In this document: positions 59,010 through 59,354 of the stretch, piece by piece
Layout of the letters: each line of letters opens with the position of its first letter
Numbering within the stretch: the first letter of the stretch is position 1
Origin: an uncultured Pseudomonadota bacterium
GTDB taxonomy: Bacteria; Pseudomonadota; Gammaproteobacteria; Burkholderiales; Thiobacillaceae
Direction of reading: 5' to 3'
NCBI GenBank assembly: GCA_903835655.1
Contig: CAILNT010000007.1
Location: 62,001-126,000 of the forward strand
Length of the DNA stretch: 64,000 nt
The notes under the pieces: model-generated
Database searches by the model: none
Told to the model about the DNA's origin: nothing
The model's input: the letters and a program-made list of their open reading frames with translations, nothing else
Program-made: the position numbers and the translations under genes

Positions 59010-59123
59010 TCAGCCTTGACGCTGCTTGTGGCGGGCTTCGCTGCAAATTACGCGAACCACACCCTTGCGACGTACGATCTTGCACTTACGACAAATCTTC
59101 TTTACAGAGGCTTGAACACGCAT
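59010..59123 (-). CDS. rpmJ: 50S ribosomal protein L36
   Basis: 37 residues from ATG 59123: [17 protein letters not shown] then [20 protein letters not shown]. The zinc ribbon C11-x2-C14-x12-C27-x4-H32 is intact. It follows the decayed infA by 22 bp and precedes rpsM. Confidence 0.97.
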
Positions 59124-59145
59124 GTCCGGCTCCTTTATCTAACAT

Positions 59146-59351
59146 TCATTTCGCACGGTAGACGATACGGGCACCCGACTGGTCGTTGAGTGTGAGTTCA
59201 TCCGTGTTTTTCTCACCGCGGGCATGCACACAACGCAGCCCCGCGGAGACAACCCAAGTACTACAAGCCCGTTTTCCAGCTTGATGCGTTACGTCGCATT
59301 CGGCAGGTTCCCACTATCTCACCCGTGTCGGCATGGCATCGATCTTGCCAC
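59146..59351 (-). pseudogene. infA: Decayed infA (translation initiation factor IF-1)
   Basis: Minus-strand sequence between secY and rpmJ, where betaproteobacteria carry infA. One frame reads NLPNAT, stop, RIKLENGLVVLG, matching IF-1 NLPNATFRVKLENGHVVLG at all but three positions. A second frame reads DELTLNDQSGARIVYRAK followed by a stop, matching the IF-1 C-terminus. Between them about 50 bp replace the 63 expected for ISGKMRMHYIRILPGDK, and the start region is also ruined (GTGGCAAGATCGATG at the expected place). Total length 206 bp against 219 for intact infA. Multiple lesions rule out a single sequencing error. A functional infA must exist elsewhere. Confidence 0.9.
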
Positions 59352-59354
59352 GCC

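What the first reader, a model, noticed from the sequence alone, without database searches (positions are those of the whole stretch)
59146..59351. infA has decayed in place inside the ribosomal operon
The gap between secY and rpmJ is not spacer: it aligns to IF-1 in two different frames (NLPNAT, stop, RIKLENGLVVLG; and DELTLNDQSGARIVYRAK then stop), with a lost middle and a ruined start. IF-1 is essential in the bacteria where it has been tested, so a dead copy in the canonical locus implies that a second infA took over. The remaining identity is still high, so the loss may be recent in evolutionary terms.
Basis: partly seen in the sequence, partly recalled or inferred. Interest (0 to 1): 0.8.

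Follow-up and report, generated by a model that had tools for sequence, protein, structure and literature searches.

The report
Dead infA beside a living paralogue
In this bacterium the usual gene for translation initiation factor 1, inside the ribosomal-protein operon, has rotted into a relic while a second, older copy elsewhere in the genome is kept, and related species show the same loss at several stages, so it is a clear example of a known way genes are lost.

Summary
The 231-base gap between secY and rpmJ holds a broken infA (IF-1) at 59146-59351, minus strand. A DNA profile of 12 intact relatives finds it with E = 5.6e-22, the only significant hit in the window.

The interpretation also holds. 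The genome (99.98% complete) has one intact IF-1 gene, a divergent paralogue (infA2) on another contig. In the relics, changes spread evenly over codon positions; in infA2 of the same species nearly all are at position 3.

The loss is neither very recent nor unique. All 7 members of the window's clade whose locus could be read have lost constraint on infA1; 17 of their 21 indels are private. A second clade of the genus has gaps of 40-121 bases without detectable infA. In the family, infA1 was lost at least 4 times. The mirror case exists: one relative keeps infA1 while its infA2 decays, and two same-genus genomes show infA1 only.

This is reciprocal paralogue loss, a mechanism already described for this operon cluster (PMC8046335). 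My searches listed no report of this case. New example of a known kind, with unusually good snapshots.

The parts
59146..59351 (-). infA1 relic (broken IF-1 gene)
   Evidence: nhmmer E 5.6e-22, envelope 59352-59146; alignment to intact relatives
59256..59309 (-). relic piece matching IF-1 codons 16-33 (one stop inside)
   Evidence: tblastn 83% identity
59149..59217 (-). relic piece matching IF-1 codons 50-72, in another frame, followed by a stop at 59146-59148
   Evidence: tblastn 70% identity; protein profile E 5.3e-5 for the piece 59149-59313
59130..59133 (-). GGAG, presumed ribosome-binding site of rpmJ, kept in 7 of 7 clade-A genomes
   Evidence: sequence; role inferred
59010..59123 (-). 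rpmJ (L36), intact
   Evidence: TIGR01022 66.5 bits
59355..60680 (-). secY, intact; exact start codon not determined (ORF runs to 60791)

Best explanation
The gap is a pseudogene of infA1, the IF-1 gene of the spc operon. The ancestor carried two IF-1 genes: infA1 in the operon and infA2 elsewhere. Once infA2 could supply enough IF-1, selection on infA1 ended near the base of the window's clade. Each descendant then gathered its own substitutions, frameshifts and deletions, while the flanking genes and the rpmJ ribosome-binding site stayed. In other lineages the same redundancy was resolved by losing infA1 completely, or by losing infA2 instead. Shown here: the relic, neutral-looking substitution in it, purifying selection on infA2, repeated and reciprocal loss. 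Inferred: that infA2 makes all the IF-1 of this cell, and that redundancy is what released infA1.
For: Profile match. Single intact infA2 in the genome, matching solved IF-1 structures over residues 1-72 (best E 6.6e-24). Codon positions 1/2/3: three path-disjoint relic pairs sum to 58/63/72 changes (G006-G010, G000-G016, G019-G022), against 11/5/88 in three path-disjoint intact pairs (G015-G020, G003-G009, G001-G011; pair counts, sums mine). infA2 in two of the same relic pairs: 1/0/24 and 0/0/13. Gap lengths in the genus: 249-260 intact (7), 231-247 in clade A (7), 121, 41, 40 and 40 in clade B. 17 of 21 indels in clade A are private and none is common to all 7. The tree needs at least 4 changes between intact and dead infA1 in the family. 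Mirror loss of infA2 in G053: 11/12/16 changes plus indels; infA2 not found in G001 and G003.
Against: No expression or protein data. Raw reads not seen. Of 18 genomes with a dead or absent infA1 locus in the family, infA2 was found in 15; the three misses (G028, G038, G045) are drafts of 80-91% completeness. In G045 the contig ends about 0.4 kb and in G028 about 1.8 kb before the place of infA2; for G038 no such break was shown. No shared disabling lesion explains the release in clade A: G017 still has a full-length frame with only its stop lost. Relics differ in how far they have gone (15 to 40 changes at otherwise invariant position-1/2 sites), so the time of release may not be the same in all.
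Confidence: 0.94

Rival explanations
1. Sequencing or assembly error in an intact infA1.
For: The lesions include single-base deletions, and raw reads were not available.
Against: Position-1 and -2 sites that never vary in 12 intact copies are changed at 30 of 114 in the window, far beyond a few indel errors. Six relatives in the same clade have altered copies at the same place.
Confidence: 0.02
2. The remnant has been kept for another role: a regulatory RNA, a leader for rpmJ, or a short peptide.
For: The last 20 alignment columns before rpmJ are more alike among relics (0.89-0.93 identity) than among intact copies (0.63-0.64), though the relics also come from a closer clade. Two other 15-column windows reach 0.78 and 0.82 among relics.
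Against: The best-kept stretch is the rpmJ ribosome-binding region. Elsewhere identity among relics is 0.34-0.82 by window, mostly below the intact set; no Rfam match reaches its gathering score; the folding energy is ordinary (z = -1.05). Clade B and g7 have lost most of the stretch.
Confidence: 0.03
3. A still functional, unusual IF-1 made by programmed frameshifting or readthrough.
For: Two recognisable pieces in different frames.
Against: Several lesions, no codon-position bias between relics, lesions mostly not shared between species.
Confidence: 0.01

Closest known systems
[quoted passage not shown] section 19 and some passages read)
   Same: Genes of the cluster (there rpmJ, rpsN) are deleted where a pre-existing homologue lies elsewhere. 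[quoted passage not shown]
   Different: Here the lineage is betaproteobacterial, the gene is infA, and intermediate stages of decay and the reciprocal loss are visible.
infA2 of betaproteobacteria, e.g. Cupriavidus metallidurans CH34 (PMC2864759; one passage read)
   Same: A second IF-1 gene.
   Different: In CH34 it is listed as a second copy; here the divergent copy is the only intact one.
infA loss from plant plastid genomes (search listing with abstract starts only)
   Same: infA is reported lost or as a pseudogene in several plastid genomes.
   Different: There the replacement is a nuclear copy (recalled); here it is a paralogue in the same bacterial genome.

Membership tests
Pseudogene of spc-operon infA (infA1) | Sits between secY and rpmJ, where relatives have infA1 | tested here: met
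Pseudogene of spc-operon infA (infA1) | Significant homology to intact infA1 | tested here: met
   nhmmer E 5.6e-22
Pseudogene of spc-operon infA (infA1) | No full-length open frame; loss of codon-position constraint | tested here: met
Pseudogene of spc-operon infA (infA1) | No functional product | not testable with these tools
   needs proteomics or genetics
IF-1 (infA2 as functional replacement) | Scores over the curated IF-1 cut-off | tested here: met
   101.5 bits against 61.15; Pfam PF01176
IF-1 (infA2 as functional replacement) | Under purifying selection | tested here: met
   1/0/24 and 0/0/13 changes by codon position
IF-1 (infA2 as functional replacement) | Complements loss of IF-1 | not testable with these tools
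   needs complementation

The most novel reading that the evidence does not exclude
The two IF-1 proteins are not equivalent. The only intact IF-1 of this genome has M, Y and K where the best-matching solved IF-1 (recalled as that of E. coli; alignment) has H30, H35 and R41, and in some relatives infA2 sits beside cold-shock-domain genes. Repeated switching to infA2 would then mean that these lineages changed how initiation is tuned, rather than merely dropping a spare.
Probability: 0.12. Interest if true: 0.6.

Novelty: new member of a known kind. Interest (0 to 1): 0.4.

Why it matters
infA is regarded as an essential gene and sits in one of the most conserved operons of bacteria. Here its loss is caught at many stages within one genus, from full-length but unconstrained, through frameshifted, to gone, with the opposite paralogue decaying in a relative. 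That makes a natural series for asking when redundancy between IF-1 paralogues becomes complete, and it warns that a missing infA in the operon does not mean a missing IF-1.

Tried and rejected
IF-1-less genomes: three draft genomes of genus g7 (G028, G038, G045) showed no infA at all. A DNA search with the infA2 neighbourhood of their relative G058 showed contigs that end before the place of infA2 in G045 (about 0.4 kb short, just before a cold-shock gene) and G028 (about 1.8 kb short); for G038 only the cold-shock stretch and a weak 65% match were found. I take these as probable assembly gaps; that is not shown for G038.

RNA element in the gap: one sub-threshold Rfam match (19 against 35 bits, E 0.94) outside the relic; folding z = -1.05.

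One loss against two in the genus: the LG+F+R4 tree separates clades A and B with weak support in between; the quick LG+G4 tree joins them at support 84, not starred. I therefore say at least 4 losses in the family, 5 in the other tree. Holding G041 with G023 and G034 is rejected (p 4.9e-80).

Shared first lesion: I looked for a common broken start or a common indel in clade A. An ATG is seen near the start in 6 of 7 (all but the window), and no indel is common to all 7; four are shared by some (G006 with G010; those two with G019; those two with the window).

A promoter for infA2: no consensus sigma-70 site in the 651 bases scanned; inconclusive.

Scripts that failed or were superseded: one search used a wrongly framed infA1 query for its infA1 column (its gap lengths stand), one search used an option that gave no output; one search replaces both. 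(tblastx clustering of infA2 loci) was too loose to use and was replaced.

Literature: nine searches of an open-access library showed, among the papers listed, none on an infA relic in a bacterial spc operon. Most listings were capped at 8-20 of a larger number (for example 20 of 557), and subscription papers are not covered.

Full report
WHAT IS THERE. The window is bases 62001-126000 of contig C7 of a 3.67 Mb genome (99.98% complete). On the minus strand lie ribosomal-protein genes, secY, a 231-base gap (59124-59354), rpmJ, rpsM, rpsK, rpsD, rpoA and rplQ (gene names from the ORF translations). A DNA profile built from 12 intact infA genes that lie between secY and rpmJ in relatives matches the gap at 59346-59147 with E = 5.6e-22; the only other listed match has E = 0.043. 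Translated pieces match IF-1 codons 16-33 and 50-72 in different frames. Twelve bases of the coding span are missing (1+1+1+9 in the MAFFT alignment), a stop stands at reference codon 22, and the start has no ATG.

WHO DOES THE WORK. The IF-1 model TIGR00008 finds one match in the whole genome: C4:75248-75454, 101.5 bits, over the cut-off, no stops. A search with the intact infA1 protein of relative G014, up to E = 10, finds that gene, the two relic pieces in the window, and one more match at E 0.56. So no second infA1 was found. The C4 gene, infA2, lies tail to tail with surA and head to head with an EipA-family gene, has GGAG nine bases before its ATG, and matches solved IF-1 structures along residues 1-72.

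HOW THE RELIC EVOLVES. In intact infA1 genes of the genus, changes fall mostly on codon position 3: three path-disjoint pairs sum to 11/5/88 changes at positions 1/2/3. In three path-disjoint pairs of relics they sum to 58/63/72 (pair counts; sums mine; paths judged on the tree). For infA2 in two of the same relic pairs the counts are 1/0/24 and 0/0/13; the infA2 of G006 is cut by a contig end, so its pair was not counted. The relics therefore look unconstrained while infA2 is strongly kept. The rpmJ ribosome-binding region at the end of the gap is the exception and stays alike among relics.

RELATIVES. The sample holds 61 genomes of the family, the window's included. I read the secY-rpmJ gap in 40 of them: 22 have an intact infA1; 18 do not. 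Of the other 21, one locus (L081, G060) lacked secY and was left out; in 9 (G002, G004, G005, G007, G008, G029, G035, G052, G055) the operon was not found or its contig ended; and 11 (G037, G039, G040, G043, G044, G046, G047, G050, G051, G056, G057) have an infA1-class match but were judged by the search alone. In the window's genus 18 genomes were readable: 7 intact (G001, G003, G009, G011, G014, G015, G020); clade A (G000, G006, G010, G016, G017, G019, G022) without constraint; clade B (G012, G013, G018, G021) with gaps of 121, 40, 41 and 40 bases and no detectable infA. Outside the genus, G023, G034 and G041 carry degraded copies, and the g7 genomes G028, G038, G045 and G058 have gaps of 18-43 bases. 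On a quick tree of 14 operon proteins the fewest changes between intact and dead is 4, or 5 if clades A and B are separate as in the other tree. Of the 18, infA2 was found in 15; the three misses are discussed under what was rejected.

WHEN. G017 has a full-length frame with no indel, but its stop is lost and its changes against G000 are 19/22/21 by codon position. Of 21 distinct indels in clade A, 17 are private, four are shared by two or three genomes, and none by all 7. Only 4 position-1 or -2 changes are shared by at least 4 of the 7 and absent from all 12 intact copies. So constraint ended on or near the stem of clade A, after which the species broke their copies largely on their own.

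THE MIRROR IMAGE. In the 61 family genomes, 33 have an infA1-class match, and 7 of these 33 have no intact infA2 (G001, G003, G039, G046, G050, G056 and G053; re-searched). G003 is 100% complete and G039 92%; the other five are 81-89%, so some absences may be gaps. In G053 infA2 is visibly decaying: 11/12/16 changes by codon position against G032, with indels and a lost ATG. Either paralogue can thus be the one that is kept.

WIDER. The named-genome scan kept the best 80 of 576 confirmed loci. In 78 of these both secY and rpmJ were found. tblastn shows a full-length infA1 in the gap in 60, fragments in 3 (Chromobacterium aquaticum L122, Aquitalea aquatica L161, Massilia aurea L142) and nothing in 15, among them Acidovorax soli, Delftia acidovorans, Pseudacidovorax, Xenophilus, a Hydrogenophaga, a Polaromonas, and five gammaproteobacterial records. 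Whether those 15 have infA2 was not tested. Among one genome from each of 40 other families of the order, 5 had only a lower-scoring infA2-class match; in 4 of these 5 the operon was read and no infA1 was detected.

TAXONOMY. G027, of the same family code, is 86.5% identical over 9.3 kb to a Thiobacillus record and groups with it in the tree (support 100), so the family is probably that of Thiobacillus; this is inference.

INTERPRETATION. The mechanism is reciprocal paralogue loss: redundancy first, then decay of one copy. For this operon cluster the principle is in print: PMC8046335 (section 19 and passages read) explains deletions of rpmJ and rpsN by homologues elsewhere and infers infA in the operons of the proteobacterial ancestor. 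A second IF-1 gene is listed for Cupriavidus metallidurans CH34 (PMC2864759, one passage read). IF-1 is called essential in PMC13030852 (passages read). The searches listed no report of this relic or its series.

VERDICT.

Noticed in passing
L192 (G053), near one end: infA2 is decaying in a genome that keeps infA1, the mirror image of the window.
   Followed up: yes
L122, L161, L142: Chromobacterium aquaticum, Aquitalea aquatica and Massilia aurea records have fragmentary infA1 between secY and rpmJ.
   Followed up: partly
L115, L123, L132, L133, L139, L149: Records named Acidovorax, Delftia, Pseudacidovorax, Xenophilus, Polaromonas and Hydrogenophaga have short secY-rpmJ gaps (73-144 bases) and no infA1 detected there.
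   Followed up: no
L001, L163, L183, L194, L195: infA2 sits in different neighbourhoods in different clades: surA, phosphoglucomutase, cold-shock-domain genes, a release-factor gene; two sequence subtypes are visible.
   Followed up: partly
L001 infA2: The only intact IF-1 of this genome has M, Y and K where the best-matching solved IF-1 has H30, H35 and R41.
   Followed up: no
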